Shown: positions 5,717 through 24,306 of the stretch, piece by piece
Position numbering within the stretch: position 1 is the stretch's first letter
How the letters are laid out: each line of letters starts with the position of its first letter
Source: a virus
DNA length: 33,675 nucleotides
Virus record (IMG/VR): IMGVR_UViG_3300010885_013346
Location: 1 to 33,675 of that record
Direction: 5' to 3' (one strand)
Program-made: the position numbers and the translations under genes
Notes under the pieces: model-generated
Told to the model about the DNA's origin: nothing
Databases searched by the model: none
The model's input: only the letters and a program-made list of their open reading frames with translations

Positions 5717-5741
5717 TCAAAAAGATTATTTTGTATCTTTA
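5711..5741 (+). promoter_or_regulatory. Probable Bacteroidota-type promoter before the Sak4-like gene
   Basis: TTG (5711-5713), a 20-bp spacer, then TATCTTTA (5734-5741), one base off the TAnnTTTG consensus. The next start codon is at 5777. A short inverted repeat, TAATC (5714-5718) and GATTA (5724-5728), lies inside the spacer and could be an operator or a weak terminator for the helicase gene. The -33 element overlaps the end of the helicase ORF. Confidence 0.5.
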
Positions 5742-5776: not shown

Positions 5777-6448
5777 ATGAGTTCGAAATTAGTAGGAATT
5801 GTAGGGGCCACTGGAACTGGAAAAAGTACCTCAATTAAACATTTAAATCCAGAAGAAACGTACATTATTAATGTTGCAAAGAAAGAGCTTCCTTTTAAAG
5901 GATCTGAAAAACTTTACAATGTAGAAAAAAAGAATTACAAAGAAATAGATGATGCTAACGAAATATCTCGTTTGTTAAAAACTATTTCAGACAAAGCTCC
6001 TCACATTAAACAAATAATTCTAGAGGATAGTAATTATGTAATGGGTTTTACAATGCTTGATAAAGCAACTGAAAAAGGTTATGAAAAATTCAGTTTAATG
6101 GCAAAAGACACTGTTACAATGATTAAAACTGCTAGACAGTTAAGAGATGATTTAACTGTTTTCTATTTTTCTCATCCAGATACTATTGAAGATAGTGGAG
6201 AAATTATAGGATATAAGATGAAAACTTCAGGAAAACTTATCGATTCTCAAATTAATCTAGAAGGATTATTTACAGTGGTATTGTATACTAATGTAGAAGA
6301 AAATAAAGATGGAACTGTAAATTATGAATTTGTAACAAATCGTTATAAAAAGATTCCAGCTAAAAGTCCTGATGGAATGTTTGCAGAAACAAAAATACCA
6401 AACAACTTACAACTAGTAGTTGAAACATTAAATGAATATTATAACTAA
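5777..6448 (+). CDS. Sak4-like RecA-fold ATPase (ssDNA annealing/recombination)
   Basis: This 223-residue P-loop ATPase has Walker A GATGTGKS (10-17) and a Walker B-like strand (IKQIILEDSNYV). Its size and order match the Sak4/ATPase_3 family of phage recombination proteins, which promote single-strand annealing and work with the phage SSB. An SSB-like gene follows 14 bases downstream, which fits this pairing. It starts after the A-rich leader AAATTAAAATT with no Shine-Dalgarno. A general AAA ATPase role remains possible, as the Sak4 call rests on the motif, size and neighbour. Confidence 0.75.
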   Translation: MSSKLVGIVGATGTGKSTSIKHLNPEETYIINVAKKELPFKGSEKLYNVEKKNYKEIDDANEISRLLKTISDKAPHIKQIILEDSNYVMGFTMLDKATEKGYEKFSLMAKDTVTMIKTARQLRDDLTVFYFSHPDTIEDSGEIIGYKMKTSGKLIDSQINLEGLFTVVLYTNVEENKDGTVNYEFVTNRYKKIPAKSPDGMFAETKIPNNLQLVVETLNEYYN

Positions 6449-7332: not shown

Positions 7333-7351
7333 TAATTATTAATTCTGTAAG

Positions 7352-7385
7352 AAGCCTCATCATTAATTTGGTGAGGCTTTTTATA
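7352..7385 (+). terminator. Rho-independent terminator after the SSB-like gene
   Basis: The inverted repeat AAGCCTCATC (7352-7361) and GGTGAGGCTT (7370-7379) forms a 10-bp stem with one G-U pair and an 8-nt loop; TTTTTATATTT follows. The loop end reads TTAATTTG just before the right arm, resembling the TATATTTG seen in two other hairpins (14374 and 18940). The primase ATG lies 15 nt after the right arm, so this element may combine termination and initiation. Confidence 0.8.
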
Positions 7386-13429: not shown

Positions 13430-14362
13430 GTGGCACATGAACTATATAGATTCTTAGAAGAAAATAGTTTTAGAATAACTAGACAAGGATTTGTTGTAGC
13501 TCTTAGAAATGTTGTAACTCTTCATGGATCCCCAGAATTAGTTCATTTTGTAAGTAATACTTATAATAAAGTGAAAGCTGTATGGAAGAAAAACCCAGAT
13601 TATTACACAATATTTTTAGAGGATGGAGAGTATAAACTTATACATGATTCTGCTTTAACAACAATTGAAACTCACACATCTACAATGTGTCAAGAATGTG
13701 ATGGAGAAGGTGGATTTGAAGATTGGGATGATGAATGGGAAGATTGTGATAATTGTGATGGATCAGGAGAAGTTGAACCTTATACATATTCTATAGAAGT
13801 TCCTGTAAATCATGGACAAAGAATTGGTGGGTTAACTGAATTGTATTTAGATCTTCCTAATAGAGAAGAAAATAGATTTACTGATGATTGGACCAAAACA
13901 TTTGATATTCGTATTGGGCAAGTGACTAGTATGCCTAAAGAAGAATGTAACTGGAGTACACAAGATTGTGCTGCTGCAGGATTACACTTCACTGCTGATC
14001 AAATCCATTATGTAGGATGTGGAGACCAATCTGTTATTGTTCTTATTAATCCTATGAAAGTGGTAGGTATTGGACAACATAAAGGTAGATGTTTTGAATA
14101 TCTTCCAATTATGACTGTTCCAAGAGAAGAAGCTACAAGTATATTACATGATGGAATGTTTGATACATTACAATTAGATGAAAGTTATGCTATTCGTGAA
14201 TTAGAGTCTCTTGCAGAAAAAGCTAAAGAAGGATTTGCAGCTGAATCTAGAAAGTATGAATTTAACATGCCAGCTATATCAGCTTTAGAAATTAATGCAA
14301 TTGTTGCCAATCTTAGTGAAATGAAAGCTAAGATAACTAATCGTGTTATTACGATTAAATAA
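13430..14362 (+). CDS. rIIB: rIIB-like protein, C-terminal part (+1 frame)
   Basis: This is the rest of rIIB. The only start codon is GTG 13430, but the matching reading runs upstream without a stop to 13391, and homology-like sequence begins at 13418 (PRAEVAHELYRFLEEN). FRITRQGFVVALRNVV matches the rIIB segment where the protein reads ..it.dG.f.A.r.V. A Cys-rich insert, CQECDGEGG and CDNCDGSGE, resembles DnaJ zinc knuckles. The end has DCAAAGLHFTADQIHYVGCG and VIVLINPMKVVGI, the conserved rIIB C-terminus. It may be made by frameshifting, from the GTG, or not at all if the gene is broken. Confidence 0.85.
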   Translation: MAHELYRFLEENSFRITRQGFVVALRNVVTLHGSPELVHFVSNTYNKVKAVWKKNPDYYTIFLEDGEYKLIHDSALTTIETHTSTMCQECDGEGGFEDWDDEWEDCDNCDGSGEVEPYTYSIEVPVNHGQRIGGLTELYLDLPNREENRFTDDWTKTFDIRIGQVTSMPKEECNWSTQDCAAAGLHFTADQIHYVGCGDQSVIVLINPMKVVGIGQHKGRCFEYLPIMTVPREEATSILHDGMFDTLQLDESYAIRELESLAEKAKEGFAAESRKYEFNMPAISALEINAIVANLSEMKAKITNRVITIK

Positions 14363-14373
14363 TAATTAATATA

Positions 14374-14411
14374 GTTATGCCATGAATATTTTCTTATATT
14401 TGTGGCATAAC
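14374..14411 (+). promoter_or_regulatory. Inverted repeat with TATATTTG element before the HNH gene
   Basis: GTTATGCCA (14374-14382) and TGGCATAAC (14403-14411) are perfect 9-bp inverted arms. The 20-nt space between them ends in TATATTTG (14395-14402), the Bacteroidota -7 consensus, directly against the right arm. The HNH start codon is 14 nt after the right arm. A -33 element is not convincing. It may be a promoter under a palindromic operator, or a terminator joined to a promoter. Confidence 0.55.
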
Positions 14412-14425
14412 TTAATTATAACAAT

Positions 14426-14815
14426 ATGGCAAAGAGAGTATTAGTCCCAAAGATAAGAAATGCAGGAACATTAAGTGAAAGTGCATTCTGGTCTTTTATT
14501 AGAAGTTCTTTAAGAAGAAGAACAATGGTGTGGTTACCTATAAGACAATGTAAGCTAAATGCTAAAAGACCTTATAAAGGAATTAACAAACGTCAAAAAT
14601 TTGAATACAAATGCAATGTTTGTAAAAAACATTTTCCTGAAAAAGAAGTTAGTGTAGATCATATAAAACCTGTAGGAACATTAACATGTGCAGCAGATTT
14701 ACCTTTATTTGTAGAAAATCTTTTTTGTGAAGAACATAATCTACAAACAATTTGCTCTAAATGCCATGATGCTAAAACATTAAAAGAAAAACAAACTAAA
14801 AATAAAACATTATGA
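14426..14815 (+). CDS. HNH endonuclease
   Basis: A 129-residue HNH nuclease. Structural zinc is held by two CxxC knuckles, C63-C66 (CNVC) and C110-C113 (CSKC). The active site is DHI (78-80, with His79), N105 in EEHN, and the CH of SKCHDAKT (His114). The N-terminal third is basic (FIRSSLRRRTMVW). Small HNH enzymes in phages act as homing nucleases, in packaging or in DNA processing; no terminase gene is in this window, so homing or host/phage DNA cleavage is more likely. It has its own upstream regulatory hairpin and overlaps the next small gene by 4 bases. Confidence 0.88.
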   Translation: MAKRVLVPKIRNAGTLSESAFWSFIRSSLRRRTMVWLPIRQCKLNAKRPYKGINKRQKFEYKCNVCKKHFPEKEVSVDHIKPVGTLTCAADLPLFVENLFCEEHNLQTICSKCHDAKTLKEKQTKNKTL

Positions 14816-18927: not shown

Positions 18928-18939
18928 TTAGGAATAATA

Positions 18940-18966
18940 AGGGAGATGAATTATATTTGTCTCCCT
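18940..18966 (+). promoter_or_regulatory. Inverted repeat with TATATTTG element before the 112-aa gene
   Basis: AGGGAGA (18940-18946) and TCTCCCT (18960-18966) are perfect 7-bp arms. The 13-nt loop ends in TATATTTG (18952-18959), touching the right arm, as at 14374-14411. The next ATG is 15 nt after the right arm. AAATTTTAAAA follows, so it could also act as a terminator for the 129-residue gene. Arms differ from the 14374 element in sequence, but the layout is the same. Confidence 0.55.
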
Positions 18967-18981
18967 AAATTTTAAAACATT

Positions 18982-19320
18982 ATGAGAGAAAATAAAGAGT
19001 TTAATGATAAGTATGATGCTTATTTAGAGAAAGATCATGGAGGTATGGAAATACAAGTTCCAGCTGTACTTACATATGTAGATCAAATATTTAATGATCT
19101 TATAAAAATTCCTGATTTTAAATATCAACAAATTAAAACTAAATATGGATTGGCAAGAGTGTATACTAACCTTGATGATCTTATACCATTTGTAGGAAGA
19201 ATTATAAACCAAGAACTTGAAGAAAAAATAAACTTTATTCTTAAAGTGGAATTTGAAGTAGAAAATAGATTAGCAAGTTTAAACCTAGATAAAGATGGAA
19301 AAAGTATTCAACCAATATAA
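18982..19320 (+). CDS. Hypothetical protein (112 aa)
   Basis: A soluble mixed protein with an N-terminal charged stretch (MRENKEFNDKYDAYLEKDHG), a hydrophobic segment (VPAVLTYVDQIFNDLIKIP) and a helical, Glu-rich end (INQELEEKINFILKVEFEVE). Not recognised. It is the first gene after the hairpin with TATATTTG, so may head a new transcript. Confidence 0.6.
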   Translation: MRENKEFNDKYDAYLEKDHGGMEIQVPAVLTYVDQIFNDLIKIPDFKYQQIKTKYGLARVYTNLDDLIPFVGRIINQELEEKINFILKVEFEVENRLASLNLDKDGKSIQPI

Positions 19321-19859: not shown

Positions 19860-20045
19860 ATGAAATTTAGAAATATAATGAGAAATAAAGATTATATAGA
19901 AAATATAGACTACTATCTTGAAGAGGGTAGAGTATATTTTACTGAGAAATACCTCAAAGAAAGAGGTGAATGTTGTGGACTAGAACATTGTAGACATTGT
20001 CCATATACAAAGAAAGAAAAAGGTAATGTTGATTTAAAAAAATAA
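19860..20045 (+). CDS. DUF5522-like Cys-rich small protein (61 aa)
   Basis: I use ATG 19860; a TTG at 19845 is in frame but less likely. It contains VYFTEKYLKERGECCGLEH, then CRHCPY, the set of Cys residues and the order (FTEKY-K-RG-CCG-xx-CRHCPY) of the DUF5522 family, which I associate with Bacteroidota and their phages. It probably binds a metal ion through its four Cys. Function unknown. The window's strongest terminator lies after it. Confidence 0.7.
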   Translation: MKFRNIMRNKDYIENIDYYLEEGRVYFTEKYLKERGECCGLEHCRHCPYTKKEKGNVDLKK

Positions 20046-20076
20046 TTTCTTTTCTGTTTTTTAATTGTTGAGAAGG

Positions 20077-20101
20077 CCCAAGAGAAATCTTGGGTTTTTT
20101 T
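20077..20101 (+). terminator. Strong rho-independent terminator
   Basis: CCCAAGA (20077-20083), loop GAAA (20084-20087), TCTTGGG (20088-20094), followed by seven T (20095-20101). The stem is perfect and the tetraloop is GNRA. An outer inverted pair, GTTGAG (20067-20072) and CTCAAC (20105-20110), encloses it and could form a longer stem. It separates the genes before it from the recA-like operon. Confidence 0.9.
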
Positions 20102-20111
20102 ATCCTCAACC

Positions 20112-20170
20112 TATTTTTCCTAAAAACAGATAAAAAGTAACTATTTTTCACTAACAATACTTATTTTTCC
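20112..20170 (+). repeat. Three phased TATTTTTC direct repeats upstream of the recA-like gene
   Basis: TATTTTTCCTAA at 20112, TATTTTTCACTAA at 20142 and TATTTTTCCTAA at 20162. The spacings of 30 and 20 bp are whole helical turns. They sit between the strong terminator and the recA-like start at 20207, in the only sizeable non-coding stretch (20046-20206). An AACAATTAAA-type repeat (three copies) lies just before the start codon. They could bind a regulator, bend the DNA, or mark a promoter or origin. Confidence 0.6.
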
Positions 20171-20206
20171 TAAAAAAACAATTAAAACAATTAAAACAAT
20201 TAAATA

Positions 20207-21292
20207 ATGGCAAAAAAAGCAGTGGTTAAAGAAACTAATAACAAGTTTCAAGAAGCAATGGATAAGTTAAATAAAACTTATGGTGTTGGATCAATTTTAG
20301 CATTAGACTCTAAAGTGGGAGGAGATTATGATGTTATCAGTACAGGTAGTATTGGTTTTGATCATATTACTCTTGGTGTAGGAGGATTTGTAAAAGGTAA
20401 ACTCTATGAACTAATGGGATGGGAAGGTACAGGTAAATCTACAATATGTGGACATGCTGCTGCTGAATGTCAAAAAGCAGGAGGAACTGTTCTTTATATA
20501 GATGGTGAACATGCTGTTGATAAATCTTATTTTAAGAAATTAGGAGTGGACACAACTAAAATGTTAATTGCTCAACCATCATGTGGTGAAGAAGGATTTA
20601 ACATTGCAATGGAAATGATTAATACTGGAGAAATTGATCTTGTAATCATTGATTCAGATAGTTCTTTAATTCCTAAAAAGATGCTTGATGGTGATGTAGG
20701 AGACTCTACAATCGGTAGAAAAGCTTTATTGAACAGTAATGCTTATCCAAAACTTAAAGGAGCTTTATCACAGCATAATGTATGTGTAATAGTGATTAGT
20801 CAATATCGTGAGAAGATTGGTGTTATGTTTGGTAATCCAACTACTACTCAAGGAGGACATGCTCTTAAATTCTATAGTGATGTAAGAATAGAAGTGTCTA
20901 GAACTTTAGCTAAAGATGGTGATGTAAACTATGGTAATATTACTAAGTTAAAAGCTATCAAAAATAAAATGTCTCCTCCATATAGAAAATCAGAGTTTGA
21001 AATAGTATATGGTGTAGGTATAGATAGACTTGCAGAAATGATGGAACTTCTTAATGAGTTTGATTTAGGACGTAAATATGGTAAAACAATGACAGTAGAT
21101 GGAACTAAATATGATCTTGAAGAATTCAAGCAACTTGTAATTGATAATCCAGAGTTCTATGATGAACTAAAAGATAAAATAATTGCTAAAATTAATCAAA
21201 CTGATATTCCTGTAGAAGAAATAGAAGTGATTGATGAAGAGGAGGTAAAATTACCAGAAGAAGGTGTTAACTTATTTACTACAGAGTTATGA
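20207..21292 (+). CDS. RecA/UvsX-like recombinase
   Basis: A 361-residue strand-exchange ATPase. The Walker A motif is GWEGTGKS (71-78) and Walker B is LVIIDSDSS (D149). The start of the RecA core is GVGSILALDSKVGG, and the L2 DNA-binding loop is MFGNPTTTQGGHALKFYSDV, the best-conserved part. The RecA C-terminal region is reduced and ends in an acidic tail (EEIEVIDEEEVKLPEEG). It pairs phage DNA during repair and recombination-dependent replication. It follows a long leader with phased repeats and a strong upstream terminator, and overlaps the next gene by 4 bases. Confidence 0.94.
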   Translation: MAKKAVVKETNNKFQEAMDKLNKTYGVGSILALDSKVGGDYDVISTGSIGFDHITLGVGGFVKGKLYELMGWEGTGKSTICGHAAAECQKAGGTVLYIDGEHAVDKSYFKKLGVDTTKMLIAQPSCGEEGFNIAMEMINTGEIDLVIIDSDSSLIPKKMLDGDVGDSTIGRKALLNSNAYPKLKGALSQHNVCVIVISQYREKIGVMFGNPTTTQGGHALKFYSDVRIEVSRTLAKDGDVNYGNITKLKAIKNKMSPPYRKSEFEIVYGVGIDRLAEMMELLNEFDLGRKYGKTMTVDGTKYDLEEFKQLVIDNPEFYDELKDKIIAKINQTDIPVEEIEVIDEEEVKLPEEGVNLFTTEL

Positions 21293-23603: not shown

Positions 23604-24293
23604 ATGATTTCAGTACTTACCATAACTTATAAAAGGTCACATCTTCTTGAAGAAGCTATTGAATCATTTTTGAAACAAGAACTTCCTCCAGAATGTGAAA
23701 TGGTAATAATTAATGATAACCCTGAGGTTGATTATGTATATGATCACCCCAGGGTTAATATTATAAACCATAAAGAAAGATTTCCTTCTATAGCTGCTAA
23801 ACTTGAATGGGGATATAAACAGTGTAAATATGATTACATATATAGACTGGATGATGATGATTTATTAACTCCTTGGGCATTAAATAATGCAAAAATAGAT
23901 ATACAAACCAATCCTGGATTTGAAATATATAGAAGTGAAGGAATGTATTTCTTTATGAATAATATATATAAGAAAGAAAGTTCTAACATTAATAATGGAA
24001 ACATTTACACTAAAACTTATTTAAATAGAATTAAATTTCCTGATAAAAGTGGTGATGAAGATGTTGATATTACATTTGGACATAATGCTACTATATATGA
24101 ATCTAAATTAAAACATACAATGATATATAGATGGGGCATGAATACATTTCATATATCAGGATTAGGTCAAGTAACTAATCAAGTTATATTAGACCATGCA
24201 GATAAAGTGTTAGATAATACAAAAGGAGAAATAATTCTTCATCCTCATTTTAATAATGATTATTATGAACAAATAAAAAAGCCACTTAAATAG
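23604..24293 (+). CDS. Glycosyltransferase family 2
   Basis: A 229-residue GT-A enzyme. It starts MISVLTITYKRSHLLEEAIE (nucleotide-binding start of GT2), has VIINDNP, and the metal-binding DxD is RLDDDD (83-86). The C-terminal His/Trp-rich part (YRWGMNTFHISGLG) would form the acceptor site. It could modify phage DNA, virion proteins or host surface sugars. It is the last gene on the rightward strand and runs into the bidirectional terminator, whose sequence includes its TAG stop at 24291-24293. Confidence 0.88.
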   Translation: MISVLTITYKRSHLLEEAIESFLKQELPPECEMVIINDNPEVDYVYDHPRVNIINHKERFPSIAAKLEWGYKQCKYDYIYRLDDDDLLTPWALNNAKIDIQTNPGFEIYRSEGMYFFMNNIYKKESSNINNGNIYTKTYLNRIKFPDKSGDEDVDITFGHNATIYESKLKHTMIYRWGMNTFHISGLGQVTNQVILDHADKVLDNTKGEIILHPHFNNDYYEQIKKPLK

Positions 24294-24306
24294 TGGCTTT
24301 TTTTTA
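24275..24306. terminator. Bidirectional rho-independent terminator between convergent arms
   Basis: A-run then GCCACT (24281-24286), loop TAAAT (24287-24291), AGTGGC (24292-24297) and a T-run from 24298 to 24305. The A-run on the left gives a T-tract on the other strand, so it stops transcription in both directions. It lies where the rightward replication arm meets the leftward virion arm and overlaps the stop of the GT2 gene and of the minus-strand Lys-rich gene. Confidence 0.9.

What the first reader, a model, noticed from the sequence alone, without database searches (positions are those of the whole stretch)
14374..14411. Inverted repeat enclosing a -7 promoter element at a fixed distance from a start codon
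Perfect 9-bp arms with TATATTTG abutting the right arm, 14 nt before the HNH ATG. The same plan appears at 18940-18966 (7-bp arms, 15 nt before ATG) and, with TTAATTTG, at 7352-7379 (10-bp arms, 15 nt before ATG). Arm sequences differ, so it is the layout that is kept. A likely meaning: a terminator for the upstream gene fused to a promoter for the next, giving insulated units.
Basis: partly seen in the sequence, partly recalled or inferred. Interest (0 to 1): 0.65.

Follow-up and report, generated by a model that had tools for sequence, protein, structure and literature searches.

The report
Phage promoter nested inside RNA hairpin
In this uncultured crAss-like phage, two genes are preceded by a switch-like 60-base element in which a bacterial-type promoter sits inside an RNA hairpin that only read-through transcripts can form, so the gene is probably expressed only from its own promoter, a design known from phage T4 and here kept in many relatives through matching changes in the two arms.

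Summary
The layout is real at two of the three sites named (14373-14412 before the HNH gene, 18940-18966). The third (7352-7379) is an ordinary terminator whose TTAATTTG loop is not kept in relatives.

In about 150 related crAss-like loci, TAnnTTTG flanked by complementary arms, the right arm abutting it, is far above chance (arms of 9 bp or more: 26 against 0.0 in shuffles) and specific to that word. At the HNH site, and in relatives at a ribonucleotide reductase-like gene, arm sequences differ but pair; wobbles are G.U (20, 27, 45) and almost never A.C (0, 3, 2), pointing to RNA of the coding strand. The box has a T[T/A]G element 19-20 nt upstream: a Bacteroidetes sigma-A promoter. The predicted start lies in the right arm, so only read-through RNA folds.

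Best reading: a promoter nested in a read-through-specific hairpin that insulates the downstream gene. In relatives' reductase sites it has a terminator's U-tract; at the window's two sites the U-tract is weak and the stem base lies 13-15 nt before AUG, so ribosome occlusion, as in T4 genes e, soc, 49 and I-TevI, is at least as likely. No RNA data exist. New variant of a known kind.

The parts
14372..14374 (+). Putative -33 element (TAG) 20 nt before the -7 box, at the outer edge of the left arm
   Evidence: T[TA]G at spacing 19-20 found in 27 of 37 distinct orthologous stems here and 8 of 8 at the second site; intergenic TAnnTTTG boxes in this phage group show TTG at the same spacing
14373..14389 (+). 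Left arm of the RNA hairpin before the HNH gene (first 10 nt pair perfectly as DNA, 17 with G.U as RNA)
   Evidence: covariation on 20 orthologs
14395..14402 (+). -7 box TATATTTG of a sigma-A (Bacteroidetes) type promoter
   Evidence: consensus from PMC9723704 and PMC7366714
14396..14412 (+). Right arm of the hairpin; contains the predicted transcription start (14407)
   Evidence: start position inferred from the -12 to -5 placement of the box (PMC9723704)
14426..14815 (+). Downstream gene: HNH endonuclease (PHROG 1985, Pfam HNH)
13430..14362 (+). Upstream gene: RIIB-like protein
18929..18931 (+). Putative -33 element (TAG) of the second site, 20 nt before its -7 box
18940..18966 (+). Second nested hairpin (12-bp RNA stem, 3-nt loop) with -7 box 18952-18959 and predicted start at 18964
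18982..19320 (+). Gene downstream of the second site, no family match
7346..7385 (+).

Best explanation
The element is a host-type (sigma-A, Bacteroidetes) promoter nested inside an RNA hairpin that only upstream-initiated transcripts can form. RNA reading through from the upstream gene carries both arms and folds into a 10-17 bp stem just before the start codon; RNA begun at the nested promoter starts inside the right arm (about the fifth base after TTTG), has no left arm and is unstructured. The hairpin therefore shuts off the downstream gene on read-through RNA, by termination where a U-tract follows and by keeping the ribosome off the start region where the stem base is close to AUG, and the gene is expressed only when its own promoter is used. 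Shown here: the layout, the compensatory change of the arms, the G.U bias that assigns pairing to coding-strand RNA, the -33/-7 signature, and the predicted folding of read-through but not of own RNA. Inferred: the start site, that read-through RNA exists, which of the two blocking modes acts, and that timing (early read-through, perhaps by the virion RNA polymerase, against later host-polymerase initiation) is what it serves.
For: Arms associated with exactly this word and register, 1-3 sites in each complete genome against almost none for control words. Covariation at the HNH site in 20 orthologs: 97.7% of cells paired, 6 pairs with changes on both sides, 28 such cells, none of 500 shuffles as high, slid controls 21-49% paired. 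At the reductase-like site in relatives own halves score 26.9 against 18.5 +/- 0.8 for swapped halves, maximum 20.6 of 200. G.U against A.C: 20:0, 27:3, 45:2. -33 T[TA]G at 19-21 nt in 35 of 45 stems, and TTGG followed by 19-20 nt and the -7 box in 25 of 32 reductase leaders. Read-through RNA folds at z -6.2 and -2.9, own RNA at z +1.8 and +0.4. U-tract nearly invariant at the reductase site. T4 precedent with demonstrated function (PMC3014915; PMC2988022).
Against: No RNA data for any of these phages. At the window's two sites the tail is close to random and the stem contains neither AUG nor a Shine-Dalgarno, so both blocking modes are unproven there. Fourteen of 71 HNH-site orthologs have a different order: a TAAATTTG/TAACTTTG box at the stop codon and a hairpin after it, which would lie in the gene's own 5' leader. 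Part of the G.U excess could come from strand-biased C-to-T change (GC skew about +0.2). At the reductase site the -33 TTGG lies in the last codons of the upstream gene, so its conservation may be partly coding. Sequences are related, so shuffle counts are not probabilities.
Confidence: 0.62

Rival explanations
1. Terminator only: the hairpin is an intrinsic terminator of the upstream gene, packed onto the same bases as the next promoter to save space; translation is not involved.
For: U-tract after the stem at the reductase-like sites in relatives (ATTTTT nearly invariant; tail mean -4.1) and at the HNH site of distant relatives (-4 to -4.9). Stem base 20-34 nt from AUG at the reductase site, too far for ribosome occlusion.
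Against: Window sites have weak tails (-2.83, -2.06; random -2.35) and, at the HNH site, the hairpin is held at 13 nt or less from AUG in most lineages.
Confidence: 0.3
2. T4-type translational timing only: read-through RNA continues, but its hairpin keeps the ribosome from the start codon; the nested promoter makes translatable RNA later.
For: Same logic as T4 genes e, soc, 49 and I-TevI and of Aeh1 mobE, several of them endonuclease genes as here; stem base 13 nt from AUG in the close clade and 3-8 nt in some relatives; weak U-tract at the window's sites.
Against: No sequestered Shine-Dalgarno or AUG; the window's stems end 13-15 nt upstream, at the edge of a ribosome footprint; does not explain the reductase sites with U-tracts and long leaders.
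Confidence: 0.25
3. Operator: the inverted repeat is a binding site for a dimeric repressor over the promoter.
For: A palindrome over a promoter is the usual sign of an operator; TGTCRCA recurs at the HNH site in many lineages.
Against: At least 33 distinct left arms at one orthologous site; changes are compensatory and the tolerated mismatches are G.U, almost never A.C, which DNA-binding symmetry would not produce.
Confidence: 0.06
4. DNA hairpin or cruciform promoter for the phage's virion RNA polymerase, as used by the unrelated N4 virion polymerase.
For: The group encodes a relative of the phi14:2 virion RNA polymerase, and early plus replication genes of phi14:2 are reported to be made by it (PMC10136315).
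Against: The -33/-7 pair is the host sigma-A signature; a template-strand or double-strand DNA hairpin would tolerate A.C on the coding strand as much as G.U, which is not seen; stems and loops vary widely in length.
Confidence: 0.05
5. Hairpin as a 3'-end or 5'-end stabiliser of mRNA, with the promoter merely fitted in.
For: Hairpins with and without U-tracts are common between genes here; in 14 HNH-site orthologs the hairpin would lie at the 5' end of the gene's own RNA.
Against: Does not explain why the right arm begins exactly at the -7 box and why the start falls inside it.
Confidence: 0.12

Closest known systems
T4 late promoters inside translation-blocking hairpins (genes e, soc, 49, I-TevI; Aeh1 mobE)
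   Same: A promoter lies inside an inverted repeat just before a start codon; upstream-initiated RNA forms the hairpin, RNA from the nested promoter lacks the 5' arm; several of the controlled genes are endonucleases (PMC3014915, PMC2988022).
   Different: Promoter is a Bacteroidetes sigma-A type and not a T4 late promoter; no Shine-Dalgarno or AUG in the stem; the stem is often followed by a U-tract; found in crAss-like phages, also at a ribonucleotide reductase-like gene; arms turn over quickly by compensatory change.
Intrinsic (Rho-independent) terminators
   Same: Stable RNA hairpin between genes, with U-tract at the reductase site of relatives and at site 2.
   Different: Weak U-tract at the window's two nested sites; the stem is built around a promoter.
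Bacteroidetes sigma-A promoters (TAnnTTTG at -7, TTG/TTTG at -33)
   Same: Both boxes and their spacing (PMC9723704, PMC7366714).
   Different: Spacer and start region are constrained to pair with each other.
N4 virion RNA polymerase hairpin promoters (from general knowledge)
   Same: A promoter with an inverted repeat in a phage that injects an RNA polymerase.
   Different: Box is the host type; pairing is conserved as coding-strand RNA.

Membership tests
T4-type promoter-in-hairpin translational switch | Promoter positioned so that its own RNA cannot form the hairpin | tested here: met
   Box at 14395-14402, predicted start 14407 in the right arm; own RNA folds at z +1.8, read-through RNA at z -6.2. 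The start itself is predicted, not mapped.
T4-type promoter-in-hairpin translational switch | Hairpin sequesters the Shine-Dalgarno and/or AUG | tested here: not met
   Stem ends at 14412 and 18966; AUG at 14426 and 18982 lies outside. Occlusion at 13-15 nt remains possible but is not this feature.
T4-type promoter-in-hairpin translational switch | Upstream-initiated early RNA is poorly translated, late RNA well | not testable with these tools
   No expression data for these phages.
Intrinsic terminator | GC-rich stem directly followed by a U-tract | tested here: inconclusive
   Met at site 2 and at the reductase-like site of relatives (tail means -4.87 and -4.1); weak at 14413 (-2.83) and absent at 18967 (-2.06); random -2.35.
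Bacteroidetes sigma-A promoter | TAnnTTTG with TTG-like element 19-21 nt upstream | tested here: met
   TATATTTG at both sites with TAG at 20 nt; TTG enriched at this spacing in 263 intergenic boxes, not in 2622 coding ones.
Repressor operator | Arm sequence conserved among orthologs | tested here: not met
   33 distinct left arms among 37 stems; compensatory change.
DNA hairpin promoter (N4 type) | Pairing conserved as DNA of the template strand | tested here: not met
   G.U on the coding strand 20, 27, 45 against A.C 0, 3, 2.
Crassvirales | Crass-type portal, terminase and virion RNA polymerase homologs | tested here: inconclusive
   The window itself has a primase about 30% identical to crAss-like ones. 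A complete relative has portal PHROG 6547, terminase PHROG 6681 and a 3712-aa protein matching the phi14:2 RNA polymerase subunit at 22.5%, E 1e-24. No tree was built.

The most novel reading that the evidence does not exclude
The nested hairpins separate two transcription programmes in crAss-like phages: read-through RNA made by the injected virion RNA polymerase is cut off or silenced at each hairpin, and the host polymerase restarts from the promoter inside the same hairpin, so one 60-base element hands a gene from one polymerase to the other.
Probability: 0.2. Interest if true: 0.75.

Novelty: new variant of a known kind. Interest (0 to 1): 0.55.

Why it matters
Transcription control in crAss-like phages, among the most abundant viruses of the human gut and also common in water, is almost unmapped beyond the finding that an injected polymerase makes the early genes. 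This element names concrete promoters, start sites and RNA structures that can be tested, suggests how single genes inside the replication operon (an HNH nuclease, a ribonucleotide reductase) get their own timing, and shows the T4 design in a phage lineage whose presumed hosts do not rely on Shine-Dalgarno sequences. It is also a compact natural terminator-plus-promoter part for Bacteroidetes genetics.

Tried and rejected
(1) Site 2 as a third member: rejected, loop box not conserved. (2) Generic sigma-70 and terminator scans: fewer promoter-like hits than shuffles, uninformative. (3) Chance in an AT-rich genome: rejected by word controls and shuffles. (4) Operator and DNA hairpin: disfavoured by arm turnover and G.U bias. 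(5) Known RNA families: no Rfam match in the window. (6) Search of cultured crAss-like phages phi14:2, crAss001, crAss002 and of Flavobacterium phage Fpv1: counts no higher than control words; one well-placed candidate in crAss001 only. (7) Fixed-column pair count at the reductase site: weak because stems sit in different registers; the swap test was used instead. (8) Literature search for promoters or terminators in crAss-like phages found nothing on this; the phi14:2 polymerase paper itself was not held. (9) First exact-pattern search of the window's own record failed through a typing error in the pattern and is not evidence.

Full report
What the window is. The record is a 33.7 kb linear IMG/VR fragment, 25-30% G+C, with DNA polymerase, helicases, primase, RIIA/RIIB-like proteins, HNH nuclease and a UvsX-like recombinase on the + strand and tail and other genes on the - strand beyond a convergent terminator at 24275-24303. 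Its primase is about 30% identical to those of crAss-like phages. Related complete or near-complete genomes are 110-118 kb; one carries portal and terminase families and a 3712-residue protein that matches the catalytic virion RNA polymerase subunit of Cellulophaga phage phi14:2. No near relative is in the cultured-phage collection.

The observation. Two of the three sites are as described: 10-bp perfect arms at 14373-14412 around TATATTTG, ATG 13 nt after; 7-bp arms at 18940-18966, ATG 15 nt after. With G.U pairs the RNA stems grow to 17 and 12 bp and include most of the -7 box. The third, 7352-7379, has a strong hairpin and U-tract, but its TTAATTTG is present in 12 of 90 orthologs, none of them below about 70% identity of the upstream protein, while 59 of 90 match a pattern for GAAA-type loops. 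It is a terminator between an unassigned 289-aa gene and the primase gene.

More than chance. Two scans of viral contigs with RIIA and primase gave 155 related loci. In these, the right arm starting exactly after TAnnTTTG is 64 times 7 bp or longer (4.2 in shuffles) and 26 times 9 bp or longer (0.0); ten control words give 2-8 and 0-3. These contexts are related and mostly orthologs of three or four sites. In six complete genomes there are 11 nested sites, 1-3 in each, against 0-2 over all six genomes for each control word.

Conserved as paired RNA. At the HNH site 20 orthologs of the close clade pair in one register at 97.7% of cells, with changes on both sides at 6 pairs and in 28 cells, above all 500 shuffles; sliding the partner by one to three columns drops pairing to 21-49%. 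All non-Watson-Crick standard pairs are G.U (20 cells, about nine independent events by eye); A.C never occurs, U.U six times. Across all orthologous stems the count is 27 G.U to 3 A.C. In relatives the same design precedes a gene whose protein begins MDLGL and continues ...KKVLPSMRA; I name it a ribonucleotide reductase (class II type) from general knowledge of that family, as the family scan failed on coordinates. There own halves pair far better than swapped halves (26.9 against 18.5 +/- 0.8) and G.U exceeds A.C 45 to 2. A coding-strand RNA is what fits; a DNA hairpin on the template strand, a cruciform or a protein operator does not. Strand-biased mutation could explain part of the excess.

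A host-type promoter. Intergenic TAnnTTTG boxes before genes in this group carry TTG 19-20 nt upstream; coding ones do not. This is the sigma-A signature of Bacteroidetes (PMC7366714), with the box at -12 to -5 in Flavobacterium psychrophilum (PMC9723704). Of 45 nested stems 35 have T[TA]G at 19-21 nt. The -33 element thus sits at the 5' foot of the hairpin, the left arm fills the spacer, the -7 box is at the top of the 3' arm, and the start falls inside the right arm at about 14407 and 18964. RNA from there has no left arm and no stable fold (z +1.8 and +0.4), whereas read-through RNA does (z -6.2 and -2.9).

How it most likely works. Read-through RNA from the upstream gene folds next to the start of the downstream gene; RNA begun at the nested promoter does not. 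Two blocking modes are open. Termination: supported at the reductase sites (ATTTTT after the stem nearly invariant) and at HNH sites of distant relatives, but weak at the window's own sites. Ribosome occlusion: stem base 13 nt from AUG in the close clade and down to 3-8 nt in some relatives, as in T4 genes e, soc, 49 and I-TevI and Aeh1 mobE, where the late promoter lies in the region of the 5' strand so that late RNA escapes the structure (PMC3014915; PMC2988022). Unlike T4, neither Shine-Dalgarno nor AUG is in the stem. Either way the downstream gene is insulated and depends on its own promoter. In phi14:2 early and replication genes are reported as transcribed by the virion polymerase and late ones by the host (PMC10136315), so the element could mark a change of polymerase; this is inference.

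Exceptions and limits. Fourteen of 71 HNH-site orthologs have a TAAATTTG or TAACTTTG box at the stop codon of the upstream gene and a hairpin after it, which would put the hairpin in the gene's own leader. In at least seven relatives another HNH gene sits between the two arms; in those read in full the arms remain complementary across an insert of roughly 500 nt. Cultured crAss-like phages show no excess, with one well-placed candidate in crAss001. No RNA-level data exist for the window's group, and no function has been tested.

Verdict. It works like T4's promoter-in-hairpin switches and, in relatives, like a terminator fused with a promoter; strict membership in the T4 kind fails on the sequestered ribosome site. 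New variant of a known kind.

Noticed in passing
L118, L015, L048, L018, L027, L053, L046 (between the RIIB and HNH genes): A second HNH gene of about 135-140 codons is inserted between the two arms of the hairpin; the arms stay complementary across the insert (with G.U pairs), and the insert brings its own TGTCRCAA repeats and TATCTTTG-like boxes. It looks like a mobile endonuclease cassette aimed at the hairpin promoter.
   Followed up: partly
L166/L047, L050, L053-L055, L058, L063, L064, L067, L132, L142, L155 and others: The same nested promoter-hairpin, with strong U-tract and nearly invariant TTGG at -33, precedes a ribonucleotide reductase-like gene in relatives.
   Followed up: yes
L061, L066 and L042, before the reductase-like gene: In L061 an HNH-like gene follows the hairpin promoter, and in L061, L066 and L042 the reductase gene no longer has the hairpin promoter directly in front of it.
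   Followed up: no
L142, L059, L065, L066, L069, L061, L063, L071, L148, L064, L077, L051, L037, L039 after RIIB: A TAAATTTG or TAACTTTG box overlaps the RIIB stop codon and a hairpin with arms such as CCCAGGGA follows: the reverse order of promoter and hairpin.
   Followed up: partly
crAss001 (NC_049977), about 35085-35150, before gp40: Cultured phage with a similar nested layout: 14-nt arms TAAAACCCTTGTAA / TTGCAAGGGTTTTA around TATATTTG. A candidate for a direct test, not significant by itself.
   Followed up: partly
window 7346-7385: Terminator-like hairpin between a 289-aa gene and the primase gene with AUG only about 10-17 nt downstream and no evident promoter in between, conserved in relatives with tight loops: probably partial termination that sets the ratio of the two proteins.
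   Followed up: partly
window 20170-20210: Repeats of about AATTAAAAC directly before the UvsX-like start codon; similar A-rich repeats precede other genes in relatives.
   Followed up: no
window 5721-5740: A shorter, G+C-poor inverted repeat (AAAGAT / ATCTTT) around TATTTTG, 37 nt before the ATG at 5777.
   Followed up: no
L175 (G010 about 20029-20090): A further nested site with -33 TTTG at 20 nt (CCCTCTG TAAGTC TATATTTG CAGAGGG) before a 56-residue membrane-like protein, seen in one genome only.
   Followed up: partly
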